64,000 bases of DNA from Amycolatopsis sp. FDAARGOS 1241 (lineage in GTDB: Bacteria; Actinomycetota; Actinomycetes; Mycobacteriales; Pseudonocardiaceae), in contig NZ_CP069526.1 in NCBI RefSeq assembly GCF_016889705.1, positions 1,860,001 to 1,924,000 on the forward strand. Reading direction: 5' to 3'. A model generated the notes under the pieces. The model was given only the letters and a program-made list of their open reading frames with translations, searched no databases and was not told the DNA's origin. Below, piece by piece: positions 40,620 to 62,070 of this stretch (positions within the stretch are counted from its first letter, which is position 1; each line of letters starts with the position of its first letter). Position numbers and translations under genes: made by a program.

Positions 40620-41783
40620 ATGCCAGGCAACGAACGAGTGCGACAGCCGCGAACCCTGCTTGAGCAGAAGATCTGGGAGCGCAAGCAGACACTGTCCGAG
40701 TTCGTCCGGTTCGCCGAAGAGTTCGCCCGCCAGTTCGGCGAGCGGGGGACATTGAGCGAACGCCATCTCAAACGCCTGGTCGCTGGTCGCGCGGCAACTG
40801 GAACTCAGATCGGCCGTCCGCGCCCCGCCACGGCAAGCCTGCTCGAACGCATCTTCGGCATCGACGTCGACGCACTTTTATCACCGGTCGTCGTCGCCGA
40901 CGACGACGACAGCGACGCGCAAGAGTTGCGTACGACGCTGGACGCCGCCCGTCGAATCACCCCCTCCATAGTCGCTCTGCTCCAAGACCAGTTGGCGAGC
41001 GTGCGACGACTCGACCGACAGCTAGGCGCCGTGACCGCGCACGATGAAGTAGCAGTCAAGATCGACCAGGTAACTCGCCTGCTCAGCCACAGCCTCTCCG
41101 CAGGAGTGCGCGAACAACTCGCAGCACTCCGCGCCGAGCTGGGAACCCTCGCCGGCTGGCAGGCACTCGACTTGGGCCGGGTCTCCGAGGCATGGCACCA
41201 CTACGAGCGGGCGAAGCAAGCTGCTAGCCAGTCCGGAATCCGCGCCTTCGAGATCCACACTTCCGCCGAACAGGCCTTCGTACTGCTGGACCTCGGCGAA
41301 ACGACAGCCGCTGTTGAACTCCTCGCCACGATCGAAGCACTGGCGCACCGCAAAGCCGACCGTTTACTGCGCTCCTGGCTGGCTGCCGCACACGGAGAAG
41401 CGCTTGCCGCGAACGCCCAGCGCTCGGCTAGCCTGCGCGCGTTTGACCGAGCGGAAGCGCTGTTGCCGTCCCATCAGTCCGAGCAACACGGTCCTTACGT
41501 CGCTCTGGATGCCGTACACCTCGCGCGATGGAGAGGGCACGCCCTTGCTCGGATCGGCGAACCGGAGGCCGTGAACGTGCTCGAAGCAGCCCTGAACGAC
41601 CTAGATCCGACATTTACGCGGGCCGAAGCTGCGCTGCGAGTCGACCTGGCCACAGCCTTCGTCGCACGAGGAGACCACGAGGCAGCATGTGCCCACATCA
41701 CCAAGGCACGCTTGCTCGCAACGGAGGTCGGCTCAAGCCGTCAGCTACGCCGACTTAGCGCACCACAGCTTCGCAACCAATAA
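40620..41783 (+). CDS. HTH/TPR regulator (paralogue of the gene at 50928)
   Basis: 387-residue protein. A short N-terminal DNA-binding part (about residues 10-85, LSEFVRFAEEFARQFGERGTLSERHLKRL) is followed by a TPR-like repeat domain (YERAKQAASQSGIRAFEIHTSAEQAFVLLDLGETTAAVELL). The same AWxHYERAKxAA repeat occurs in the XRE-TPR gene at 50928-52055, so the two are paralogues. Such signal-peptide-sensing regulators control quorum-like functions in actinobacteria. ATG 40620 with GAGGAGAGG. It faces the small-gene operon. Confidence 0.8.
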   Translation: MPGNERVRQPRTLLEQKIWERKQTLSEFVRFAEEFARQFGERGTLSERHLKRLVAGRAATGTQIGRPRPATASLLERIFGIDVDALLSPVVVADDDDSDAQELRTTLDAARRITPSIVALLQDQLASVRRLDRQLGAVTAHDEVAVKIDQVTRLLSHSLSAGVREQLAALRAELGTLAGWQALDLGRVSEAWHHYERAKQAASQSGIRAFEIHTSAEQAFVLLDLGETTAAVELLATIEALAHRKADRLLRSWLAAAHGEALAANAQRSASLRAFDRAEALLPSHQSEQHGPYVALDAVHLARWRGHALARIGEPEAVNVLEAALNDLDPTFTRAEAALRVDLATAFVARGDHEAACAHITKARLLATEVGSSRQLRRLSAPQLRNQ

Positions 41784-42231: not shown

Positions 42232-44652
42232 ATGGCAGTCGACAACGAACGTATCGCCGCATTTATCGGCGAGAGTCCGCTCCGCCAACAGGTCGCAAGC
42301 GTTCTGCAACGGGCCGGCTTCCTGATAGTGTGGGTCTTCGAGGAAGCGAACGGCTCCCGCTGGGGCCTGTACCTAAAGCTGCCACCAACACTGAAAGAAC
42401 TATTCGGAACAGGACGCGAAGTACTGTTCTGGGTAGTCCAGTCGGCCGATTTTCAGGCGCGCACAATCACGCAGGCGGATAGTCATATCCGCAAAAATCG
42501 CCCGAGACTATGTGAAGATTTCGCGATCGTCGCAACACATGACAAAAGTACAGCAGAACATGCAGCTGAAACCGCATCAACGCTTAGCACCATATTCGTT
42601 GGATTTAACCTTGATCACTTCAAGGAATATGAGCCATGGGGACCACGCAGCTTTGTAAGGGAACTCCAGGCCCAGCTGTACTCTCATGATCTATATGATC
42701 TACCTGGCGCCGTTACGCGCTCAGAGGATTTTTTCGGTCGCAGAGAAATAGTAACCGAAATAGCCTCAAGGTTGCGTCAAGGAAGCCGCCATGTCGGGCT
42801 ATTCGGATTGCGCAAGATTGGAAAGACGTCCCTACTTTACAGACTAAAATCCACACTACTCAATGTCGACAACGTTTATGTAACCCATATCGACATCGAG
42901 AGACTTGACGCGATCAATGCAACTGCGGAGTACTTAATATGGAGCCTGGGCGAATCGATCTACGACGCTCACAGGCACATGCGACGAATCACGGGACTCC
43001 TCCTATTCGGGAAATATCGAATATTCACAGAGGTCGACGACAAAGCCTCTGTATTTGAACTGTTTGATCACGACCTTCGAAAAGTTCTCTCGTCTACAAA
43101 GCGTCCAATTGTCGTGCTGCTAGACGAAATTGAATTGCTGTCACCTGATTTGCCCGGGTCAAAATGGGGTGGTGCATTTGTTCGAGTCTGGCGCCTTCTC
43201 AGGGGTATAGATCAGCAATTTCCAGGAAGAATCAGCTACTTCACAACGGGGACGAACGCAAGTATATTCGAATCAAATTTTGTCGGAGGGCAGGAAAACC
43301 CTGCGTACAACTACGTTTCAGTCGAGTACCTCAAACCGCTCCACCGAGAAGATGTCTCTAAACTCCTTGTAGGCCTCGGAAGTCGAATTGGGCTCACATG
43401 GGACGAAAAATCGACTTCTCGAGTCTTTGATGCAACCGGAGGACACCCCGCCCTTGTACGATCGTTGGCATCGTTAATTCATCGCACAAATCGAAGCTTC
43501 GAATCAGTGAAGACCATCACAAGCGACGATGTAGATCTAGCGATCAAGAACTTCCTCAACGAACGTAGCTCCCTACTCGGGCAAATTGTAACCGTGCTAG
43601 ACGAACAATACCCCGACGAGTACCTACTTCTCGAGTTTCTAGCTACCGGCCGGGTCGCAGAATTTCGGCAGTACGCCGCCGAATTTCCATCAGACGTCGC
43701 TCACCTTCTCGGATATGGAATTTGCACAGATCCAAATTCCAGCCGTAGGCTTGAGATTGAACTTCTTCAAACTTTCATACAGCGCCGCGAGAGATCGAAA
43801 GCCCTTGCGGCTACCGGAACGGTGGGTTTGCCACCCGGAAGTATGATCGACGAGTACAAAATAGTTTCGTCCATCGGTCACGTTGGCGGCTACTCAACAG
43901 TGTACGCAGCAGACACTCCAATTGGTTCAACTGTTGCCGTTAAAGTATTCCGGAGTGGCCTACTGAGCATCTTGCAGAGAGAACTAGAGCCGCTGCAAGA
44001 AATATCCCACCCAAATGTTGTCAAGGTTCTAGATTATGGCAAGACCGCCGACGGCCTCGTCTACATGGTCACGGAGTACCTAGAAGGCGATAGTCTGCGC
44101 GCGTACTGTACACGTTCGACTCGTGCATCGGAGCGAGTTGTTGCGAGCTGGCTCGCACAGCTCCTATCCGCGATGGTGTCGTTTCACCCTAATGACGCGA
44201 AGGTTCAGAGACTAAGGTCTGCCGATGAGCTATCGGTCGACGATCTAGGAGACCTCGAAGAAGCGCGACACGGGTTTGTTCATCGAGACATTAAGCCAGA
44301 AAATATCATTGCCAGCAATCGCGGAGTAGTGCTCATTGATTTCAATATCTCCTCTCAAGCGTCCATGCCAGTTATCACCGAAAGCGGCACCCTTGGATAC
44401 CAGCCGCCGGACGGCGCAGGCGTCCGGTGGACACCTGATGTCGATCTTTACCAACTTGGCATAACAATGTTGCAAGTATCGTTGGGTATCGAGTTCACAG
44501 GCGATAATGTCGAAGACATTCGGACGCTTGCAAACGAAGAATTGAGCTCTCAGCTTGGGAGAATTCTGCTAAAGATGACAGCGCCTAGTCGCGCACAACG
44601 ATACGCCAATGCCGACGGTGCACTGGGTGCCGTCCGAGCTCTTCAGATGTAG
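42232..44652 (+). CDS. Fusion of a STAND-like/AAA+ ATPase with a PglW-like Ser/Thr protein kinase
   Basis: 806-residue three-part protein. Residues about 1-175 are an unrecognised N-terminal domain. Residues about 180-420 are a P-loop ATPase with GLFGLRKIGKTSLLYRL (about 189) and Walker B VVLLDEIELL (about 293), followed by a TGGHPALVR sensor-like motif. Residues about 540-806 are a protein kinase: IGHVGGYSTVYAA glycine loop, VAVKVF with the ATP Lys, HRDIKPEN near 684, but DFN instead of DFG near 703 and GTLGYQPPD as activation segment. The LIDFNIS form is typical of PglW/BREX-associated kinases. It is visibly AT-rich (29 of 60 G+C in 43201-43260), so acquired. The nuclease-NTPase gene follows 17 bp downstream. 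Confidence 0.82.
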   Translation: MAVDNERIAAFIGESPLRQQVASVLQRAGFLIVWVFEEANGSRWGLYLKLPPTLKELFGTGREVLFWVVQSADFQARTITQADSHIRKNRPRLCEDFAIVATHDKSTAEHAAETASTLSTIFVGFNLDHFKEYEPWGPRSFVRELQAQLYSHDLYDLPGAVTRSEDFFGRREIVTEIASRLRQGSRHVGLFGLRKIGKTSLLYRLKSTLLNVDNVYVTHIDIERLDAINATAEYLIWSLGESIYDAHRHMRRITGLLLFGKYRIFTEVDDKASVFELFDHDLRKVLSSTKRPIVVLLDEIELLSPDLPGSKWGGAFVRVWRLLRGIDQQFPGRISYFTTGTNASIFESNFVGGQENPAYNYVSVEYLKPLHREDVSKLLVGLGSRIGLTWDEKSTSRVFDATGGHPALVRSLASLIHRTNRSFESVKTITSDDVDLAIKNFLNERSSLLGQIVTVLDEQYPDEYLLLEFLATGRVAEFRQYAAEFPSDVAHLLGYGICTDPNSSRRLEIELLQTFIQRRERSKALAATGTVGLPPGSMIDEYKIVSSIGHVGGYSTVYAADTPIGSTVAVKVFRSGLLSILQRELEPLQEISHPNVVKVLDYGKTADGLVYMVTEYLEGDSLRAYCTRSTRASERVVASWLAQLLSAMVSFHPNDAKVQRLRSADELSVDDLGDLEEARHGFVHRDIKPENIIASNRGVVLIDFNISSQASMPVITESGTLGYQPPDGAGVRWTPDVDLYQLGITMLQVSLGIEFTGDNVEDIRTLANEELSSQLGRILLKMTAPSRAQRYANADGALGAVRALQM

Positions 44653-44668
44653 GAGGCGGGAGACCCTA

Positions 44669-46987
44669 GTGTCAGACTATGACTTCCGCACCCTCTCGCC
44701 GCTCGACTTCGAGTTGCTCATTCGCGATCTTCTTAGTGCCGACCATGGATTGGCATACAGCTCCTATGGCGCTGGACCCGATGGTGGAATTGACTTGCTT
44801 GCTTATGATGAATCGTCACACGGCATGACAGTAGTTCAGTGCAAGCAACGCCCGGATTTGACTGGCTCACGTCTAGTACAATCGCTAAAAAAAGAGGCTA
44901 TCGGTCGAAATTGGAGCGTCACACCAGACCGCTACCTGCTTGCCACGTCAGCCTCGATTTCACCACAGTCTGAAGCTAAGTCACGATCGGCTCTAGCCCC
45001 GCTTCCTGTACCAATTGACGGGATTCTTCATAGAGGAAGATTAAATGGTCTCCTCAGTGCGCATCCAGAAGTGGAGCGAAGACACTTCAAACTCTGGTTG
45101 GCCTCAGGAGCATCTCTTGACAGGATAAGTAACGCCGGCCAATGGGAGAGAAGCGAGGAGCTTCTACAGCGCGTGACAGACCGAGTCCGATTGTACGTCG
45201 ACACAGCGGCATACGACGCGGCGTTGAGCACCATCGAAGCGCAAAACATTGTGACAATAACCGGACCTCCTGGCGTCGGTAAGAGTACGACAGCCGAGAT
45301 GCTTCTCCTGTCAATGTGGCATTCCGGCTGGACTGTCATAGATGTGACTTCCAGCATCGAAGAAGCGTGGAGGTTGTTACGCCATCCAATTCCGAAGCAG
45401 GTCTTCTACTACGATGATTTCCTCGGCCAGACCAGTTCCGAAGAGCTAGCAAAAAACGAATCCGCAAGTATCGCAAATCTCATTGAGGCAGTCAGACGGG
45501 GCGACGGCGGACGACGGCTTGTAATGACCACGCGAGACCAGGTTCTTGCTCAAGCCCGTGTTGGAAGCGATGACCGACTGCGTCGCATGCCGATTGATTC
45601 CTCCAGGGTTCGGGTCCAAATATCAGAGATGACGAGAGTCCAACGAGCGCGTCTTCTATTCAACCACCTTCATTTTAGCTTGAATAAGCCTTCTGACCGG
45701 GAATACGCAGCGAACAACGTCGACCAAAATCTTGCCATAATTGATCACGAAAACTTCAGTCCGAGACTCATTGAGTCCGCCACCATGCGCACAACATTCG
45801 ATAGCTGCGTTGACCTCTACGCCAGACTGACCAGCGCTCTAGAAAATCCGGAGGAGTTATGGGCCGGCAGCTACACCGGCTTATCTCTGCTCTCAACAGC
45901 CATACTGAACCAGCTGGTGACACTGCCAGGTGGAGACATCGACATCGATGCGTTACATTCTGCTGTCGGAAAGCCGGAAAGTCGTGCGTGGAGAGAATCC
46001 CTGCGAGTATTGGAAGGTTCATGGATTAGGATTACGGCACCAAACCGATGGCACCTTTCCGGCACTGCCAGCCTATTCGATGGAAGCAGGCGTGACTTCT
46101 TACTGGGACGCCTTGAAAATAGAACTGCTGCGGAGGAAGTGCTAGAGCAGACCTTCTGGATCGAGCAGGTTGACTACCTAACGAGACTGAGTGGTCTTAG
46201 CAACCATTTCGCGGTAACGCCACAGCCGGAGAAGGGATACCGAGCGACTCTTAGCAGCTTCAAGGACCAACTCGCTTATGCCGCGGTGAGGGTCGTTGAC
46301 GCCGAGATCGATTCGTGGCACAGAGAAGACCAGCTCACGCCCGGCTCCAACCAACCTGCCTATCGAAGAAACTCGAACTCGAGATTTTCGAATGTGCTTA
46401 CGTCCGCCGCAATTGTGTTGCGGTCTTGCGGGGCGTTACGCCGAACCGAATGGCTTTGCCGACGATTGGATGAGTTCTTGTCGAGCATTGATTCCACGAA
46501 GTATGTGGTGACGGCTTCCGACTTGTTGAGTTTAGCCGAAGAGTACACAGCATTTACTTCAATAGACTGGGACTCAAGGATGGAGGCAATACTGGCAGCG
46601 GCGACTGCAAGTCTAGAAACCGCGGACGAGCTTGACCGTTACGACGCAGCGATCGCTGGCCGACCGGAGCTGCGACCAAGCACCACGGTAGTCAGCCGAG
46701 TCATCGACGGGGAAATTGACGGAGCGCGCCAGCAAAGTGATCACGAAGTTGTAAGTCAATGGATCAACGATATTCGGGAACTCGGCGATAGATACGGATT
46801 AGATCCGGATCTGGAAGCTCTGTATGAGCTTGAGGAGAACCTAAAAAAGCGCAAGTCGACGCCACTGGAAAAAATTGACTCGTTGACTGGGCCAAATGAG
46901 CAGGCGGGAAGTGTTCGAAAAACTGAGGACAGCGAAATAGTTACCTTGTTTATGCGGTTGTCCGGTTCCGACGGTCCCAACTCATAG
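44669..46987 (+). CDS. Mrr-like restriction endonuclease fused to an nSTAND3 NTPase
   Basis: 772-residue protein. N-terminal Mrr-like nuclease (about residues 5-110): LSPLDFELLIRDLLS supplies the helix Glu, GPDGGIDLLAYD the catalytic Asp (about 38-42) and VVQCKQR the QxK (about 57-59). Central NTPase: GPPGVGKSTTAEML Walker A (Lys about 205) and QVFYYDDFLGQ (Asp about 249), the signature of nSTAND3. The C-terminal half is helical, probably a sensor. STAND NTPases with nuclease effectors are abortive-infection proteins (Avs-like). The start was taken as GTG 44669, 17 bp after the kinase gene, with GGGAG upstream, making a two-gene operon. Confidence 0.85.
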   Translation: MSDYDFRTLSPLDFELLIRDLLSADHGLAYSSYGAGPDGGIDLLAYDESSHGMTVVQCKQRPDLTGSRLVQSLKKEAIGRNWSVTPDRYLLATSASISPQSEAKSRSALAPLPVPIDGILHRGRLNGLLSAHPEVERRHFKLWLASGASLDRISNAGQWERSEELLQRVTDRVRLYVDTAAYDAALSTIEAQNIVTITGPPGVGKSTTAEMLLLSMWHSGWTVIDVTSSIEEAWRLLRHPIPKQVFYYDDFLGQTSSEELAKNESASIANLIEAVRRGDGGRRLVMTTRDQVLAQARVGSDDRLRRMPIDSSRVRVQISEMTRVQRARLLFNHLHFSLNKPSDREYAANNVDQNLAIIDHENFSPRLIESATMRTTFDSCVDLYARLTSALENPEELWAGSYTGLSLLSTAILNQLVTLPGGDIDIDALHSAVGKPESRAWRESLRVLEGSWIRITAPNRWHLSGTASLFDGSRRDFLLGRLENRTAAEEVLEQTFWIEQVDYLTRLSGLSNHFAVTPQPEKGYRATLSSFKDQLAYAAVRVVDAEIDSWHREDQLTPGSNQPAYRRNSNSRFSNVLTSAAIVLRSCGALRRTEWLCRRLDEFLSSIDSTKYVVTASDLLSLAEEYTAFTSIDWDSRMEAILAAATASLETADELDRYDAAIAGRPELRPSTTVVSRVIDGEIDGARQQSDHEVVSQWINDIRELGDRYGLDPDLEALYELEENLKKRKSTPLEKIDSLTGPNEQAGSVRKTEDSEIVTLFMRLSGSDGPNS

Positions 46988-47106: not shown

Positions 47107-47880
47107 TTAGCTGCGAACTGCGCTCATGGTGTTATCCAGGGTCGCAGTGATGTACTCCGCGCTGCCAGGGCCGCAGGTGATGATGTCGTCACCACTGGCG
47201 CCGTCCTGAATAAAGGTAAGAACTCGCCCGGTATCGGCCGTGTCTACAACGGTCAGAGGAAGGCTGGACGACCGCGTACTGTTGGCGCGCGCTGCCACAT
47301 AGAACTGATGGACGGCGCCCCTCCGGGACGCCATTAGCGTGCGAAGTTGATCAGCTTCGCTAGGAAGGGTGTAGTCACTGGTCACGTCAAGCGAGTAGAA
47401 CTCGCTGACCAGGTTTGCCGAGTACTCGGACCGAGCCACCGAGAACTCCCTAATGCCAGCCGGCCGACAGTCAGGTAGCGTGTCGACGACCGCTTGCAGC
47501 GCCCGACTCGCCGGAATTCGTTCCAAGGTGACTAGGTCATCGTTAACAGTGATCAGCAACCCGGACCGTGAGTTGTAGGTCGCCAACACCGCCGAAGGCT
47601 GGCCTTCACGAAAAGCCGAGAAGCAGTAGCATTCGGACTCCGCATTGGCGATGCCCAGCAGCAAGTCCCGAAACTCGCCGACAATCCGCTGACGGCGGAG
47701 ATCGTAGAACCCCGGCTCCGCTAGCGCCTGTCGAATCAGGTCATCAACTTTGGCGGACACGTCGTCTTCGAACCACACGTCGACGATACCGAGCACGGGA
47801 TGCGCTGGGCCGATCTGTTCCCATTCCCACGCTCTGGCAACTGCGAGGCGCGGCACCGTCACCGGTTCTTCGAGCAACAT
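47107..47880 (-). CDS. EspG-family ESX secretion-associated protein
   Basis: 257-residue protein with the EspG pattern: VDDLIRQALAEPGFYDLRRQRIVGEFRDLL early, SVLATYNSRSGLLITVNDDLVTLERIPASRALQAVVDTLP centrally and GRVLTFIQDGASGDDIITCGPGSAEYITATLD at the end. EspG proteins chaperone PPE-type substrates of type VII secretion. The start at ATG 47880 (or GTG 47883) lies just after the PPE-like gene stop. The pair with a PPE-like gene directly upstream is the expected order. Confidence 0.85.
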   Translation of the reverse strand: MLLEEPVTVPRLAVARAWEWEQIGPAHPVLGIVDVWFEDDVSAKVDDLIRQALAEPGFYDLRRQRIVGEFRDLLLGIANAESECYCFSAFREGQPSAVLATYNSRSGLLITVNDDLVTLERIPASRALQAVVDTLPDCRPAGIREFSVARSEYSANLVSEFYSLDVTSDYTLPSEADQLRTLMASRRGAVHQFYVAARANSTRSSSLPLTVVDTADTGRVLTFIQDGASGDDIITCGPGSAEYITATLDNTMSAVRS

Positions 47881-47888
47881 CACGAGCG

Positions 47889-49157
47889 CTATTTCCCGAT
47901 GACGGGCGGCGTCGCCTTGCCGTCGTAGCCGAACAAGGCGTTTGGGTCAGGTTCAAGAAGGTAGGGGGCGGACTTCTTCTCCTTGTCCTCTTCCTTGCTG
48001 CCCTTGCCCGCTCCGGCGCCCATCGGCACACCGTTCGCGCCACGCGCACCCGTGGTGCCTGGACCGCCCTTCACAACCGGTTCTTCCACGGCGCCGAAAC
48101 GGCCGGCGCCAGTCGATCGGCCAGGCCCGCCAAGAACGCCGGAGCGTGAGCCGGTCCCCGGCGTGTTTGCCCCGCTGCCAGCGCCTGGGACCGGCTCAAC
48201 TGAACCCGGTGCGCCCCGCACGAACGCTCCGCCGAAGCCAGATCCAGTACCAGGCGTGGACGAGCTACCCGAGCCTATTGGGCCAAGCCTCACGGCATCC
48301 GTACCGCGCGAACCGCCGGTACCCGGTTCCGCTGGGGGCACGAATCCCGATGTGCCGGTGCTGTCGTCTGTGCTGGCGGCGGGTACCTCGATCTCGCCCG
48401 ACGAACCGCCGAGACCACCCCCGGCTTGGTGCTGTCCTGGCGACGAACCTGCGGGAGCGTTTCCCGGCCCGGAGTGGGAGGTGAACGACGTTGGCCCGCT
48501 GTCCTGCCCGGACGATTGCGACCACGGTCCTGCGTCCGTGCCACTCGCTATGCCAGAATCCGGCCCGGTCGACGGCTGCTGTACCGCGAACGTGCCTTGA
48601 GGTGTGTCAGGCACCTGGCCGTAGTCTGTCGGCATCTTCTGCGCGTGGCCGTCACTGGTCGAGGTGAAGCTCTGATAAATCTGATTGTTCTGCTGTATCG
48701 CGGCGTTGCGCTGGTTGATCTGGTCCTCGGTGTCGGTGTCCCAGGGCGTCACCACGTCGACCACGCCACGTGACGGGGGATCGTCGGACACGTCCTGCAT
48801 CGAATCGCGCGTCGACTGGAAGGCGTGGCTCTGGTCAGTCAGCGCGTTCTGGCTGTTGTTCAATGCCGTCGACGCGGATGCTGCCACGTCAGCCAAGGGC
48901 CGAAGGCCAGCCCTCGCGGCATCGCCGCTCTGGCCAGACCACGCAGCCTCCAGGCGGCCGACGGCCGCCATTGTGTCTGACTCAATGCTCTGCTGCTCCT
49001 GGGCCTGCAGCGCGCTCGCGTTTTGGGCTTCCCCGAGGCTCGCCGGCCCAGGCCCGGCCTTGACACGCCGGACCAGCTCGCCCGGCAGGATGATCTTGCC
49101 CTCCGCCTGCTGCTGTTGGAGGTAGAGCCTGAGTGTTTCTGCAGGGCCCGACGCCAT
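47889..49157 (-). CDS. PPE-like type VII secretion substrate with long Gly/Pro-rich tail
   Basis: 422-residue protein. Residues about 1-180 are a helical bundle with AAWSGQSGDAARAGLRPLADVAASASTALNNSQNAL, which contains the WxG-type turn, fitting a PPE/WXG domain. The rest is a long low-complexity Gly/Ser/Pro region with repeated GTGGSRG, GSGFGGAF and GTGSRSG. It is expected to be secreted by an ESX system with EspG as chaperone. Start ATG 49157 (one-base overlap with the lipoprotein stop), preceded by GAAGGGCGG. Confidence 0.8.
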   Translation of the reverse strand: MASGPAETLRLYLQQQQAEGKIILPGELVRRVKAGPGPASLGEAQNASALQAQEQQSIESDTMAAVGRLEAAWSGQSGDAARAGLRPLADVAASASTALNNSQNALTDQSHAFQSTRDSMQDVSDDPPSRGVVDVVTPWDTDTEDQINQRNAAIQQNNQIYQSFTSTSDGHAQKMPTDYGQVPDTPQGTFAVQQPSTGPDSGIASGTDAGPWSQSSGQDSGPTSFTSHSGPGNAPAGSSPGQHQAGGGLGGSSGEIEVPAASTDDSTGTSGFVPPAEPGTGGSRGTDAVRLGPIGSGSSSTPGTGSGFGGAFVRGAPGSVEPVPGAGSGANTPGTGSRSGVLGGPGRSTGAGRFGAVEEPVVKGGPGTTGARGANGVPMGAGAGKGSKEEDKEKKSAPYLLEPDPNALFGYDGKATPPVIGK

Positions 49158-49774
49158 CACGCACCGCCCTTCAAGGTGGTGATCGCCAAGTCGGCGACCT
49201 TGCGTGCGTCGTCGCATGGGTCGCCCTGCCCGACCACGGCGTTCGCCACCCGTACGTCGGCCTCGAAGGCGGCGTTGTTGGCGATACCGATCGCGACATT
49301 GCAGAAGCCCTTGGAGCGGTCATCCGACGGCCCGTAGGCGACGACCGGGTACCCCTGAACAGGCGCAAGCTCTTTGAAGAATCCACGGCCCTGTGTCGCG
49401 TACACAGTGCCAAGGCCGTCCTTCCAGGAGTACACGAGCTGGATGCCGATCTGCGAACCCCGGTCGACATCACTCCACGAGCACGACTTGGCAACGCCGG
49501 TGTCCTCGGCAGCGCCGCGCTGCGGAGGACGAGAGAACAAGGAATCAACCTGCGAGGAAGTCAGAACTGCGCACGGATCGCCCTGAATCAACGAGGCTGG
49601 TAGCGGGTTCGCGATCTCAGGGGCCGCTGAACCGGATTGCTGCCCGCCGGTCGTGGGCGACGGATTCCCGGTTGACATCGGGCTAGCGGTTCCGGACGTG
49701 CCCGAACACGCCGACACGGCGCAGATAACGGCGAGCCCGACGATCGCAATGCTGACGTGTCGTGCGCGAGCCAT
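49157..49774 (-). CDS. DUF3558-type lipoprotein
   Basis: 205-residue protein starting ATG 49774. A signal peptide (IAIVGLAVICAVSACSG) ends in a lipobox Cys, followed by a Thr/Ser/Pro linker and a DUF3558-like domain with GDPCAVLTSSQVDSLF and KSCSWSDVDRGSQIGIQLVY, the paired Cys of that family. It is anchored to the cytoplasmic membrane exterior. It sits between the PPE-like gene and the small first gene with one-base TGATG overlaps, so all four genes form one operon. Confidence 0.85.
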   Translation of the reverse strand: MARARHVSIAIVGLAVICAVSACSGTSGTASPMSTGNPSPTTGGQQSGSAAPEIANPLPASLIQGDPCAVLTSSQVDSLFSRPPQRGAAEDTGVAKSCSWSDVDRGSQIGIQLVYSWKDGLGTVYATQGRGFFKELAPVQGYPVVAYGPSDDRSKGFCNVAIGIANNAAFEADVRVANAVVGQGDPCDDARKVADLAITTLKGGA

Positions 49775-53630: not shown

Positions 53631-54100
53631 ACAAGGATGAATCGAAACCTCGCCTCGCCACCGTGCTCCGGCTGCCCGCTCCGGGCTCACCGACTCCAGC
53701 ACAGCGCCTCGCCGAGCAAGCCGCGCAAGCGGCAGACGTCAGGCGTTGGCAAAGCCACCCGGACGTGGTGGCCCTGCAAGTCGAACGCGTCCGGGTCCAA
53801 GTCGATCGGCTGTGCTGGGCCGGGATCATCCTCGGCTTGGCGTTCACCACGGCGAACGTGCAGTGGTTCGCGGCCGCCGGTGCCGTGCCCGGTTCGCTGC
53901 CGTGGCTGACAGCGTGGCTTCTAGACCCGACGGTGTCCTTGGTGTTGCTGGCGATCCTGCGCGCCGAGCAGGTCACCGCGCGGTACCAGGTGCGGACCGG
54001 CACGTGGGTCCGGGCGGCGAAGTGGCTGACGCTGGCGGCCACCTATGTCATGACGCTTCTATGTTTGTCAAGGCGTTCGTGTGCTGGTGGTGTGGGTGGT

Positions 54101-55159
54101 TCAGGCGAGTGTGGGCGTGGTGTTGAGAGTGCGGAAGAGTTCGCGGGCGACGTAGCGCTTGAGCATGCGCCGGATTTCGCGGTCGCTGTTGCCCTGGGCG
54201 CGGCGTCGAGCGATGTAGTCGTGGGTTCGGGTGCAGGCGCGCCAGCGAGTGAGAACGATCGCGTGCAGGGCGCAGTTGAGTGCTCGATCGCCGCCGCGGT
54301 TGAGCCGATGCCGGGCGGTGCGTCCGCTGCTGGCCTCCAGTGGGCTGGCTCCGGCCAAGGCGGCGAACGCGGCCTCGTTGCGGCAGCGTCCTCGATGCGA
54401 CCAGGACACGATGGCCTGGGCTGCGGAGACGGGGCCGACGCCGAGCTTGGCGACCAGCGCGGGGGCCATCTCGGTGACGATCGTGGTCAGCTCCCTGGTG
54501 TTCGCGGCCAGGTCGGCGGTGGTGTCGCGGATGCGGGTGGCCAGGCGTGCAGCCTCGCTCCGGCGGACGGTCTGCTCACGGGTCTCGCCGGGAGCAGGGG
54601 CACGGTTGATGATCGCGTCGAGGTGCTTGCCGGCGAATTGTTTGGGCCGGTTGAGGGCGCGGTCGGTGTCGTCGCCGGTGATCAGCAGCGCGCGGAGTTG
54701 ATTGATGCTCCGTCGGCGGGTGTCGCCCAGCTCCTGGCGGGCGGTGAGCAGGATGCGCAGCGCTTCGCGGTCCCCGTCGGCGCGCGGGGTGGGCAGCTTG
54801 TCAGTGTCCAGGCGCAGAGCGTGGATCGCGGCCAGGTGAGCGTCGATCGCGTCGGACTTGCCCCGGCGCCGCTCGTGGCCGCGTGGCTGCTCGATCTCCA
54901 GCACCAGGACACCGGCGGCGTTCAGGGCGCGGGCAAGGCCGACACCGTAGCTGCGGCTGCCCTCGACCGCGGCGGCGATCCGGGGACCGGGCGCGTTCTG
55001 GTTGATCCAGGCCAGGGCCTGGGCAGCGCCGGCATCGGTGTTGGCCACGGTCAGCGTCGAAAGAGTCACCCCAGTCGCCGTGGTGATCTCCAGCGTGTGG
55101 GTATCGCGGTGGGTGTCCGCGCCCACCACTGCGTCGATCACATCGGCCAGCTTCGTCAT
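54101..55159 (-). CDS. IS110-family DEDD transposase/recombinase
   Basis: 352-residue enzyme. N-terminal DEDD residues: Asp in VVGADTHRDTHTL, Glu in AAVEGSRSYG, Asp pair in GKSDAIDAHLAA. The C-terminal serine-containing domain shows ASPLEASSGRTARHRLNRGGDRALNCAL. These are the RuvC-like and Tnp domains of IS110. ATG 55159. It is encoded opposite to the transfer operon and needs a bridge RNA from the 5' non-coding end. Confidence 0.92.
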   Translation of the reverse strand: MTKLADVIDAVVGADTHRDTHTLEITTATGVTLSTLTVANTDAGAAQALAWINQNAPGPRIAAAVEGSRSYGVGLARALNAAGVLVLEIEQPRGHERRRGKSDAIDAHLAAIHALRLDTDKLPTPRADGDREALRILLTARQELGDTRRRSINQLRALLITGDDTDRALNRPKQFAGKHLDAIINRAPAPGETREQTVRRSEAARLATRIRDTTADLAANTRELTTIVTEMAPALVAKLGVGPVSAAQAIVSWSHRGRCRNEAAFAALAGASPLEASSGRTARHRLNRGGDRALNCALHAIVLTRWRACTRTHDYIARRRAQGNSDREIRRMLKRYVARELFRTLNTTPTLA

Positions 55160-55445
55160 CGAACAGTCGGTTCCCTTCCACAATGGTCGGACTCGGGAAA
55201 GGCGCCGGCCTGGGTAACGACCACCGAGCGGCACTTCTGTGAGGAGTCACGCGGCCGCCGCCGCGGACAAGCTTCTGATCAAGCCAACAGGTGGCACAGG
55301 ACAGCGCCGGTGAGCGGGAGGACATGTCATGACCAAGACACACGTCCTGCCGGACGCGGTCACAACACATGCGAGTCACTCCTGAACACCGGCACCGATC
55401 CTGCTAGCGGACCAGACCGGAACCGCCTATCGACACACTCACAGA
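55160..55445 (-). ncRNA. Putative IS110 bridge RNA
   Basis: Non-coding 5' end of the IS. In RNA order it contains GGTGTTC (55390-55384, equals the left target plus core), GTCATGA (55333-55327, complementary to core plus right target), AGAAGC (55276-55271, equals the right IS end) and CTCACAGA (55243-55236, complementary to core plus left IS end). This is the target-loop then donor-loop order of known bridge RNAs. AGGACGTG/CATGTCCT may form a stem at the target loop. Confidence 0.7.
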
Positions 55446-58228: not shown

Positions 58229-59797
58229 CTAGGAGCGGTCGTTCCCCCTCTGCGCATGCCAAATCGCAACGACGTTGGCAAATTCCTCGGAGTCGTGCAC
58301 CTGCAACCGCGTCCGGTCGAAAACTCGCCGACCGCTCAGGTCACCCGGCATCACGCACAGTTTGTCCAAACCCAACGCCTTGGTCAGCATTGCACGGCGC
58401 ACCGCCACATCGCCGCCAAGCCATTCGGCTTCAAGCTCCGCTGAGGATTGCGCTTCTGTCGGACCTGCGGTGGCTCCAGCGGACAGCGTCTCGCGTTCGG
58501 CGTTCAGGCGGGCAAGATCCGCCGCAAGCGGCTCGTTCGCCACGTCGAAGGCATCAAGCGTGATCTTCCTCCGGCCCAGTCGTTCGGACAGGCTCCTTTG
58601 CAGGGTTTCAACTTCGCTGATCTCCTGTGCGATGGCCTTGAGCCGTTCGCCCTCCTGCTCCACCACACTCGCCAAGCGCGCCGCCTGACGTTCGTCGGAG
58701 AGCCGAGCAACTGTGAACGCGAGCAGTTCCGCGTCGACCCTCGCTCGATCGACAAAGATCTTCCCGCACCCACGTCGGTGGCGAGCGCAGATGTAGGCAC
58801 TGCGCGGTGTTCCGTCGGCGTAGAAACGCTTCTGATCCTTGCGGCCAGTCAGCTTGGACCCGCACCTACCACAACGAAGGATCCCCGTGCCGATGTAGGA
58901 CAGCCCAGGAACGCGCCCACGTTTCCGCCCTGCGAAGAAGGCTTGCAGCCGATCGTAAGTGCGCTTGTCGAGAATGGGCTCGCCTTCGAGCCTCCCGACG
59001 ATCTTGCCGTCGTGAACCAGGTGACCACCGAGCGAAGCGCGCTTCAACGTTGCGACAACCGTCGCGGGGATCCACTCCAGTCCGTAGACAGAGTGGATAC
59101 CCGCCGCGTTCCACTGGTCAGCCACCTTCTTGCCGGAACCGCCTTCGGACAGCAGCAGTGTTGCCGCGTCGCGGAGCGCTTGCCGCTCCCGTTCGACCAG
59201 CTCCGCGGAGACCTCCGGGCGGTCCGCCTTCGTCTCGCCTTCCGCAGGAACCCACGTCAGGTCTTTCCCGGGAAATCCGAACCGACGGGGACCACCCGTT
59301 TCCCGCCCCTGCGACCTGAACGTCTCAAACCGCCGCTTCAGCCGTCGCGACGTGTCGTCGCTCGACCGCGCTGCGTGCGCGACCTCGATCCGAAGGATGA
59401 ACCGGTCATCCGGGTCGGCCAGATCACGCGCGCCGTGCGCAGAGAAGACCTTGTAACCGTTCTCAGCGAGGTCAATGAGCGCTTCCAGGTCGCGCGGCTG
59501 CCTGAACAGCCGGTCGGTGTGCCACACCACGCACCCGTCCGACTCCCCGGACTCGACCCTGGCGAGAAGGGTCTCCCAACCCTTCCGGCGAACGCCTCGC
59601 TTCCACGCCGACAGCCCGTCGGACAGCTCAAGCCCGAGCGTGCCGCCCACCCGACCGATCACCTTCCGATTGTCGGCATGCTGGGTTTCGATCTTCTCCA
59701 GCTCCCCGGTCTCCGGCACCTGCGACAGTCGCCCGTAGGAGTCCAGGACCAGCCGCCCAGGCTCCCCACCAGCGCTAACCTCGTCCTTGTTGACCAT
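58229..59797 (-). CDS. Large serine recombinase (element integrase)
   Basis: 522-residue site-specific recombinase. The catalytic Ser is in LVLDSYGRLSQ (YxRxS), followed by GRVGGTLGLELSDGLSAWKRGVRRKGW and WHTDRLFRQPRDLEALIDLAE (resolvase core). Residues about 190-400 hold the recombinase and zinc-ribbon domains (ILRCGRCGSKLTG and ICARHRRGCGKIF, four Cys), then a coiled coil. ATG 59797 was chosen; GTG 59803 or 59806 are possible and no site is clear. It lies just inside the right terminal repeat, which is the position expected for the element's own integrase. Confidence 0.92.
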   Translation of the reverse strand: MVNKDEVSAGGEPGRLVLDSYGRLSQVPETGELEKIETQHADNRKVIGRVGGTLGLELSDGLSAWKRGVRRKGWETLLARVESGESDGCVVWHTDRLFRQPRDLEALIDLAENGYKVFSAHGARDLADPDDRFILRIEVAHAARSSDDTSRRLKRRFETFRSQGRETGGPRRFGFPGKDLTWVPAEGETKADRPEVSAELVERERQALRDAATLLLSEGGSGKKVADQWNAAGIHSVYGLEWIPATVVATLKRASLGGHLVHDGKIVGRLEGEPILDKRTYDRLQAFFAGRKRGRVPGLSYIGTGILRCGRCGSKLTGRKDQKRFYADGTPRSAYICARHRRGCGKIFVDRARVDAELLAFTVARLSDERQAARLASVVEQEGERLKAIAQEISEVETLQRSLSERLGRRKITLDAFDVANEPLAADLARLNAERETLSAGATAGPTEAQSSAELEAEWLGGDVAVRRAMLTKALGLDKLCVMPGDLSGRRVFDRTRLQVHDSEEFANVVAIWHAQRGNDRS

Positions 59798-59810
59798 GCC
59801 CACCACGGTA

Positions 59811-60092: not shown

Positions 60093-60975
60093 TCACGTGG
60101 CCGGTCGAGTGTCGAGGAACGCCGTTACGGCGGGGTCCGGTTCGGTGCTGCGGTGCAGGAGGTCGAAGTCGACGGTGAGGTCCGGGTCCGTCAGCGGCCG
60201 GTACTCGACGTCGGGGACGGCGGCGCGTTGCACGCCGGCCGGGACGATTGCGGCGCCGGCGGAGACGAGGGCGAGGACGGTCAGGGTGGTGTCCGCGCGG
60301 TGGCGGGCCGGGGTGGGCCGCAGTGTCAGCGCGGCTTGGGACAGCACTTCGGCCGCTGTGTTGTCCCGGTTGTCGCCGAGGGAGTATTCGATCAGCTCCT
60401 CGCCGAGGAGGTGGTCGGCGGTCAGCTTCCGGTGCCGGGTCAGGGCGTGCCCGGTGGGAAGGGCCACCGGGAACGACAGGGACCCGATGTGCGCCGAGGC
60501 CAGCCGGGGTTCGGTGGGTGGTGCGGGGAGGGCGCTGAAGCCGACGTCGAGCTCGCCGGCGAGGATCGTGCAGCGCTGGCGGGCCGGGCCGGCTTCCCGG
60601 AGGTCGAGCCGGACGCGGGGCCGGGCGGTGTGGAACGCGCGGAGCTGCCCGGCCAGCAGGTCGCCGAGCACCGTCGCGCCGGCGACACCGATCCGCACCC
60701 AGCCCGGTCTCGCCGGCCAGCGCCAGCCGGGCGGTGGTCTGGGCCTGGTCGGCCTGGGCCGGCACGCGGCGGGCTTCGACGAGGAACGCCCGACCGGCCG
60801 GCGTGAGGCTGGTCCGGCGCGCGCCGCGGTCGAACAGTGGCCCGCCGAGTTCGCGCTCCAGGTCGCGGACCTGCATGCTCAGCGTGGGCTGGACCACGTG
60901 CAGCCGGCTCGCCGCCCGGCTGAACCCGCCCTCCTCGGCGACGGCGACGAAGTACCTGAGGTACCGCAGCTCCAT
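60093..60975 (-). pseudogene. LysR-family regulator gene with a frameshift
   Basis: The start MELRYLRYFVAVAEEGGFSRAASRLHVVQPTLSMQVRDLERELGGPLFDRGARR at 60975 is the LysR HTH. At about 60700 the frame changes: ALAGETG in one frame is followed by VRIGVAGATVLGDLLAGQLRAFH in the next, then the effector domain to 60093. A single-base indel accounts for it. Divergent from an amidohydrolase pseudogene, which it would have controlled. It may be intact if the indel is an assembly error. Confidence 0.75.
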
Positions 60976-60985
60976 CGCGCCTCCT

Positions 60986-61000
60986 ATCAGTGGCACTGAT
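60986..61000. promoter_or_regulatory. Palindrome in the LysR-amidohydrolase divergent region
   Basis: ATCAGTGGCACTGAT has 7-bp perfect arms around one G, 11 bp from the LysR start, and fits an autoregulatory LysR site. Confidence 0.5.
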
Positions 61001-61085
61001 CCACGGATCAGAAGCAAGTGTTGGACTTTGTCGTCGCCCACACTCACCGTGGAGGGAGACCGCCAAGATCGAATCGAGGTGCCCG

Positions 61086-62070
61086 ATGCGGATCGTCACG
61101 CTCGAAGAACACTGGTCCGACCAGGCGGTGTCCGCCGCGGCCTGGCCGAACTCGTCCCCGGGTACGAGGCCGTGTCCGGCGCGGGCACGGGGCTGCCCTA
61201 CACCGAGCGGGCGGCCCTGATGCCGGACCTCGGCGCCGCCCGGATCGCCGACGTGGACCGCAACGGCATCACCACGCGGGTGCTCTCGTGCCTGAACACG
61301 TCCCTGCCGGCCGAGGTCGCGCCCGCGCTGACGCGGGCCGCCAACGACACCGCCGCCAAGGCGGTGCAAGCCCACCCCGGCCGGTTCGCGGCATTCGCCA
61401 CGCTGCCCACGGCGGTGCCGGACGCGGCAGCCGACGAATTGCGCCGTTGCGTGTGCGAGCTCGGCTTCGTCGGCACGATGATCATGGGCCGCACCGACGG
61501 GCAGTTCCTCGACGAGCGTAGCTTCGACCCGATCCTGCGCGCGGCGAGCGAGCTGCCGGTGCCGATCCACCTGCACCCGGCCCCGCCGCCGATTGCGGTC
61601 AGCGAAGCCAACTATGCGAGCGACTTCGCCCCCGGCGTGTCCGCGGCGTTCCGGCCGGCGGCCCGGGGCCGGCACCAGGAGAGGCCGTGCACTTCCTGCA
61701 CCTGGTTCTGTCCGGTGTCCTCGACCGCCACCCGGACCTGCAGTTCATCCTCGGGCACTGGGGCGAGTTCATCCCGTTCTACCTCGACCGGCTCGACGAG
61801 GCGCTGCCGGCGCGGCTGACCCGGCTCGACTGCACGTTCCGGGAGCACTTGCGGCACAACGTGTTCATCACGTCCAGCGGGATGTTCAGCCCGGCGCAGC
61901 TGCGCTACAGCGTGGACACCGTCGGCGCCGACCGCATCCTCTACTCGGCCGACTTCCCGTTGATCGGCAACGAAGGCGCCGCAGCGTTCCCGACCGAGGC
62001 GGAGCGGTCCGAAGAGGACAGGGCGAAGATCGCCCACGGCAATGCCGAGGAGCTCCTCGGCCTGAGCTAG
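61086..62070 (+). pseudogene. Amidohydrolase-2 family gene with several frameshifts
   Basis: The start MRIVTLEEHW at 61086 keeps the first metal Glu/His, then the frame shifts: GYEAVSGAGTGLPYTERAALMPDLGAARIADVDRNGI and VPIHLHPAPPP are in the second frame, and HFLHLVLSGVLDRHPDLQFILGHWGEFIPFYLDRL onward is in a third to 62070. The pattern is that of the gamma-resorcylate decarboxylase/ACMSD group (amidohydrolase-2). At least two shifts break it. The stop overlaps the convergent VanW gene by 4 bp. Confidence 0.72.

What the first reader, a model, noticed from the sequence alone, without database searches (positions are those of the whole stretch)
42232..46987. Two-gene candidate anti-phage system: ATPase-kinase fusion plus Mrr-nSTAND3 NTPase
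The first gene joins an unrecognised N-terminal domain, a P-loop ATPase and a PglW-like kinase; the second joins an Mrr-like PD-(D/E)xK nuclease to an nSTAND3 NTPase with a long helical sensor. They form a tight operon (17 bp apart) in an AT-richer block inside a conjugative-type element, flanked by unrelated cargo. STAND NTPases with nuclease effectors and PglW-like kinases are both linked to phage defence separately; I do not know this exact pair. One reading is that the kinase part sets the activity of the nuclease NTPase.
Basis: partly seen in the sequence, partly recalled or inferred. Interest (0 to 1): 0.85.

Follow-up and report, generated by a model that had tools for sequence, protein, structure and literature searches.

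The report
Two neighbouring STAND-type defence genes
A mobile element in a bacterial chromosome carries two adjacent genes that look like anti-phage sensors, one ending in a protein kinase and one beginning with a DNA-cutting enzyme; elsewhere the two are mostly found apart, so they look like two separate defence genes sharing a transcript rather than one fixed two-part system.

Summary
Gene 1 (42232-44652, 806 aa) is a family-specific N-domain, a STAND-like NTPase and a Hanks-type kinase. Gene 2 (44669-46987, 772 aa) is an Mrr-type nuclease, nSTAND3 and a helical C-terminus. They are co-directional, 16 bp apart. Gene 2 matches PADLOC candidate PDC-S73; its model's best Foldseek matches are Avs5, SAMD9 and Avs4 (low TM-scores), so it reads as Avs5-like with a nuclease in place of SIR2. 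"PglW-like" is not supported. The pair is not a fixed system: 0 of 8 other gene 1 neighbourhoods (8.0-9.5 kb per side) hold gene 2. Their neighbours are a type IV restriction enzyme, PDC-M34, type I RM genes, or nothing recognised. A syntenic element in a same-family genome carries gene 2 without gene 1. Gene 1's N-domain/NTPase module also occurs with a HEPN-like domain in the kinase's place, and one distant kinase-bearing protein branches with those. Best reading: two separable defence genes as element cargo, the kinase being the output of its own NTPase switch. Nothing here tests phage defence or kinase targets.

The parts
42232..44652 (+). gene 1: STAND-like NTPase-kinase, 806 aa
42232..42711 (+). 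gene 1 N-terminal alpha/beta domain (about residues 1-160), no Pfam family
42712..43521 (+). gene 1 NTPase (about residues 161-430): GLRKIGKTS, DE, GGHP
43522..43806 (+). gene 1 helical part after the NTPase (about residues 431-525)
   Evidence: secondary structure of the model
43843..44649 (+). gene 1 Hanks-type kinase (residues 538-806), catalytic residues present, DFN in place of DFG
44651..44656 (+). AGGAGG motif over the gene 1 stop codon, 12 nt before the GTG of gene 2
   Evidence: read from the sequence printed
44669..46987 (+). gene 2: Mrr nuclease-nSTAND3 protein, 772 aa (PADLOC PDC-S73)
44669..45118 (+). gene 2 Mrr-type nuclease (about residues 1-150), E15, D42, Q57, K59 invariant
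45194..45676 (+). gene 2 nSTAND3 NTPase (residues 176-336)
45677..46984 (+). gene 2 mostly helical C-terminal part, probable sensor
   Evidence: sensor role inferred from Avs5
40620..41783 (+). NsdA-family regulator gene before the cargo slot
   Evidence: NCBIfam NF053720 130.9 bits over cut-off 75; counterpart in L128 at 64% DNA identity
55611..57974 (+). FtsK/TraB-like gene of the element
   Evidence: scores under the curated cut-offs for the window ORF
58229..59806 (-). large serine recombinase near the right end of the element

Best explanation
Two separable anti-phage genes travel as neighbouring cargo of an integrated mobile element and are probably transcribed together. Gene 2 works like Avs5: the helical C-terminus senses a phage product, nSTAND3 binds ATP and oligomerises, and the N-terminal Mrr-type nuclease, standing where Avs5 has SIR2, cuts DNA. 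Gene 1 is a second switch: its N-domain and C-flanking helices hold the STAND-like NTPase, and on activation the C-terminal kinase phosphorylates host or phage proteins; the kinase is the output of its own NTPase, not the regulator of gene 2. Shown: domains, catalytic residues, linkage, separate occurrence, domain exchange on the module. Inferred: phage triggers, oligomerisation, kinase targets, anti-phage activity, co-transcription.
For: Gene 2 absent from 8 of 8 other gene 1 neighbourhoods. Other neighbours: type IV restriction enzyme 77 bp downstream in G968 (PADLOC mREase_IV 929.9 bits), PDC-M34A/B 344 bp downstream in G862 (241.2, 226.5 bits), hsdM and hsdR next to a copy in G255 that lacks about its first 87-98 residues, no recognised partner in G126, G395, G1189, G1589. 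G493 has a syntenic element with gene 2 at the slot after the NsdA-like gene and no gene 1 match in the 19.9 kb held. The N-domain/NTPase module carries a HEPN-like C-terminus in place of the kinase in a sister group, and one kinase-bearing protein (L125) branches with that group at support 0.978. Avs5, SAMD9 and Avs4 chains fill Foldseek ranks 1-10 for gene 2.
Against: The 16-bp gap with AGGAGG over the stop codon suggests coupled translation. P0018 and P0123 (78.6% and 62.4% identical) both have 4957 bp as longest contig, so the pair probably exists once more and has lasted through divergence. TM-scores of gene 2 to Avs5 are only 0.27-0.31 with rmsd over 22 A, and VIA-align's 50 rows are generic AAA+ NTPases without Avs5. 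The HEPN reading is weak: 1 of 19 by Pfam, under the cut-off; hhalign probability 10.8%. L125 lacks the GLRKxGKTS and GGHP patterns. Only 8 neighbourhoods were seen, genes called by a home-made script.
Confidence: 0.55

Rival explanations
1. One reading: an obligate two-gene system in which the kinase of gene 1 phosphorylates gene 2 and sets the activity of its nuclease-NTPase.
For: 16-bp gap, AGGAGG over the stop codon; a probable second instance of the same pair on one metagenome contig.
Against: 0 of 8 other gene 1 neighbourhoods hold gene 2; gene 2 without gene 1 in a syntenic element and on a Streptomyces plasmid whose annotated neighbours include no kinase; more relatives found for gene 2 (451) than for gene 1 (203), both from capped candidate lists.
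Confidence: 0.15
2. A recent functional partnership in this lineage: each gene works alone, but in this operon they act as layered defence, with the kinase dampening or backing up the nuclease.
For: Conserved arrangement in the one inferred second instance; PMC13373217 (passages seen) shows a kinase pair, of another fold, controlling adjacent immune operons.
Against: No interaction evidence; only one other instance; CapK is a GHKL kinase acting through a repressor, CapS, and no such partner was identified here.
Confidence: 0.18
3. The genes are not defence genes but element-borne regulators or stress genes.
For: No phage data; kinases and STAND NTPases also serve other signalling.
Against: Mrr nuclease-nSTAND3 architecture, PDC-S73 match at 326.1 bits, defence genes beside gene 1 in three other genomes.
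Confidence: 0.1

Closest known systems
Avs5 (AVAST type 5)
   Same: N-terminal effector, nSTAND3, helical repeats at the C-terminus (PMC12931631, passages seen); Avs5 chains are Foldseek ranks 1, 3-6, 8 and 9 for gene 2
   Different: Mrr-type nuclease in place of SIR2; TM-scores 0.27-0.31, identity 10-13%
PADLOC PDC-S73 (phage defence candidate)
   Same: gene 2 matches at 326.1 bits over model positions 2-501 of 752; the G493 copy at 375.6
   Different: the model's last third is not covered; a candidate without a paper found
MADS kinase MAD6 and single-gene kinase PD-T4-6
   Same: best NCBIfam (107.5 bits) and best PADLOC (97.9 bits) models for gene 1
   Different: the PADLOC rows shown match only the kinase part; MAD6's match begins at residue 481, is far under its cut-off of 460 and does not cover the N-domain/NTPase
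Kinase-lacking relatives of gene 1 (AAA_35-type proteins, e.g. on Klebsiella plasmid pF13_1)
   Same: same N-domain/NTPase module, 245-313 bits in P0101-P0121
   Different: HEPN-like C-terminus instead of a kinase
CapK/CapS
   Same: a kinase gene beside diverse immune operons (PMC13373217, passages seen)
   Different: GHKL kinase plus STAS repressor; not homologous in domain content

Membership tests
Avs5 / Avs-type STAND | nSTAND3 NTPase with intact P-loop | tested here: met
   148.8 bits; P-loop core invariant in 38 rows
Avs5 / Avs-type STAND | N-terminal effector, helical C-terminal sensor | tested here: met
   Mrr_cat over its cut-off; helical C-terminus in the model
Avs5 / Avs-type STAND | SIR2 effector (Avs5 proper) | tested here: not met
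   nuclease domain instead; Pfam lists no SIR2 family at E up to 1
Avs5 / Avs-type STAND | whole-chain fold like Avs5 | tested here: inconclusive
   Foldseek top ranks but TM 0.27-0.31; not in the VIA-align rows shown
Avs5 / Avs-type STAND | activation by a phage protein, filament or oligomer formation | not testable with these tools
   -
PDC-S73 | match to the PADLOC model | tested here: met
   326.1 bits, positions 2-501 of 752
BREX PglW | match over the curated PglW cut-off | tested here: not met
   24.7 bits, cut-off 990
MADS (MAD6) | match over the curated MAD6 cut-off | tested here: not met
   107.5 bits, cut-off 460
MADS (MAD6) | other mad genes alongside | tested here: inconclusive
   only the five proteins at 40.6-49.2 kb were scanned against PADLOC; weak mad3 and mad8 matches (14.6, 19.9 bits) to the NTPase of gene 2 only
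STAND NTPase (gene 1) | Walker A, Walker B and a conserved GxP-like motif after the NTPase core | tested here: met
   GLRKIGKTS, DE, G-H-P invariant or nearly so; that GxP marks STAND is recalled
STAND NTPase (gene 1) | match over a STAND family's cut-off | tested here: not met
   ATPase_2 25.0 (33.2), nSTAND6 15.2 (27.7), nSTAND1 13.2 (27.1), so the label STAND-like is by resemblance

The most novel reading that the evidence does not exclude
Gene 1 founds an unnamed family of immune switches with interchangeable outputs: one N-domain/NTPase module that ends in a protein kinase in one lineage and in a HEPN-like RNase in another, the kinase having been joined or kept more than once, so that protein phosphorylation serves as the lethal or protective output of a bacterial STAND-like sensor.
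Probability: 0.35. Interest if true: 0.6.

Novelty: new variant of a known kind. Interest (0 to 1): 0.4.

Why it matters
If true, phosphorylation would be a direct output of a bacterial NTPase switch, exchangeable with an RNase, and finding the kinase substrates would show what such immunity targets. Gene 2 would extend the Avs5 plan to a DNA-cutting effector. Both are directly testable. The claim that the two form one new system matters less, since the evidence is mostly against it.

Tried and rejected
Rejected: PglW-like kinase. Rejected as unproved: gene 1 as dedicated partner of gene 2. Considered: N-domain of gene 1 as a dead Mrr-like nuclease; its alpha/beta order looked suggestive, but hhalign against gene 2's nuclease gave 0.4% probability, and the two NTPases 0.5%. 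The fold searches of gene 1 were filled by kinases, so its N-domain fold stays untested.

Viral, plasmid and phage searches gave no match covering 80% or more of gene 1. The N-domain search found 7 proteins, the window's own included, all kinase-bearing. No att repeat: longest shared string 11 bp, below the median of 12 for random segments. No empty site: four relatives share the right flank from 60104-60134 on, but nothing left of it in 364 kb of the genome. A sigma-70 scan found no promoter before gene 1 (1 site, inside it; 3.6 expected). PDC-S73 occurs in no paper of the library. I found no paper on the gene 1 family; that is no proof of absence.

Searches of gene 1 by genome: 3 of 394 (own included; two further partial matches dropped, G209 kinase part only and G200 without kinase), 1 of 297 (own), 2 of 300, 0 of 5, 1 of 392, 2 of 245 (the same two as), 2 of 145 (one distant at 1.5e-95), and of 6 genomes reached by loci one full-length match (G397 matched only residues 25-500 and was dropped).

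Full report
What is there. Gene 1 (42232-44652) and gene 2 (44669-46987) lie on the + strand in a stretch of 49-53% GC. The gap is 16 bp; AGGAGG overlaps the gene 1 stop codon, and no terminator-like site lies between the genes. Co-transcription is likely but inferred.

Are they a pair? Gene 1 is rare: see the counts in Tried and rejected. Eight neighbourhoods other than the window's were read, 8.0-9.5 kb per side. None holds gene 2. G968 has a type IV restriction enzyme 77 bp downstream (929.9 bits), G862 PDC-M34A/B 344 bp downstream. G255 has hsdM and hsdR upstream, and its copy of gene 1 lacks the first 87-98 residues, so it may be a remnant. G1605, a distant relative, is followed by an acetyltransferase gene. 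G126, G395, G1189 and G1589 show no recognised partner; G126 has a 150-aa same-strand ORF without Pfam match, and G1589 a 565-aa ORF 85 bp upstream that was not scanned. In G1189 the gene lies 85 bp from a convergent ORF with a weak integrase match (19.6 bits, cut-off 27.1) near an FtsK-like gene, so it too seems to be element cargo. Gene calls came from my own script.

The reverse case. Of 110 own-family genomes, 2 have gene 2: the window's own and G493. G493's contig carries a syntenic element (64-75% DNA identity in six blocks), and gene 2 (39.6% identical over 412 residues, read in two overlapping frames) lies 323 bp after the NsdA-like gene, where the window has gene 1; gene 1 has no match in the 19.9 kb held. 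Hence the slot can take gene 2 without gene 1.

For the pair: P0018 (78.6% to the last 490 residues of gene 1) and P0123 (62.4% to 591 residues of gene 2) both report 4957 bp as longest contig and the same source. One contig with both genes is the likely reason, but I could not fetch it.

Exchange of outputs. The gene 1 module (about residues 1-525) occurs without kinase in P0097-P0121. In 19 aligned such proteins, 17 have R-x(1-2)-DAH near the C-terminus. Pfam gives HEPN_Swt1 in 1 of 19 (18.2 bits, cut-off 27.5). hhalign to the HEPN_Swt1 protein of L117 aligns up to 114 columns with the R...AH motifs together, at E 0.0029 but only 10.8% probability; the spacing between R and H is one residue shorter in most. 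So HEPN-like, not proved. In a FastTree of 103 modules, midpoint-rooted, 76 of 77 kinase-bearing ones form a clade (support 0.961); the 77th, L125, groups with 19 HEPN-like ones, a viral one and P0099 (support 0.978). L125 has the HRDxKPxN motif but not the GLRKxGKTS or GGHP patterns. PMC8195603 (passages seen) lists S/T/Y kinases among effector domains in NTPase conflict systems, so a kinase output is a known theme.

Verdict. Two separable defence-like genes, neighbours by cargo gathering, possibly cooperating. The mechanism of gene 1 is inferred from architecture only. No phage experiment bears on it.

Noticed in passing
window 54054-55443: A segment with an IS110-family transposase (54101-55234) is absent from the syntenic element of G493, whose matching blocks abut at L128:4311-4312: a likely insertion.
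   Followed up: partly
window 47107-49217: An EspG-family gene (114.5 bits) and a PPE/WXG-like gene (below cut-off) of type VII secretion type lie in the element beside the pair.
   Followed up: no
L108 8400-9300: The gene 1 copy of G255 has lost about its first 87-98 residues and begins at the end of an hsdR-like gene.
   Followed up: partly
L155 4923-6926; L089 9758-11785: Kinase-lacking relatives of gene 1 with a HEPN-like C-terminus on a conjugative Klebsiella plasmid and a viral contig.
   Followed up: partly
window 60104-62063: The right flank (LysR-type and amidohydrolase genes) is shared by 6 of 49 other genus genomes at 74-76% over about 1.5 kb or more; their left neighbour differs.
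   Followed up: partly
P0109, P0115: The gene 1 module fused behind a cold-shock domain and TPRs (for P0109; for P0115).
   Followed up: no
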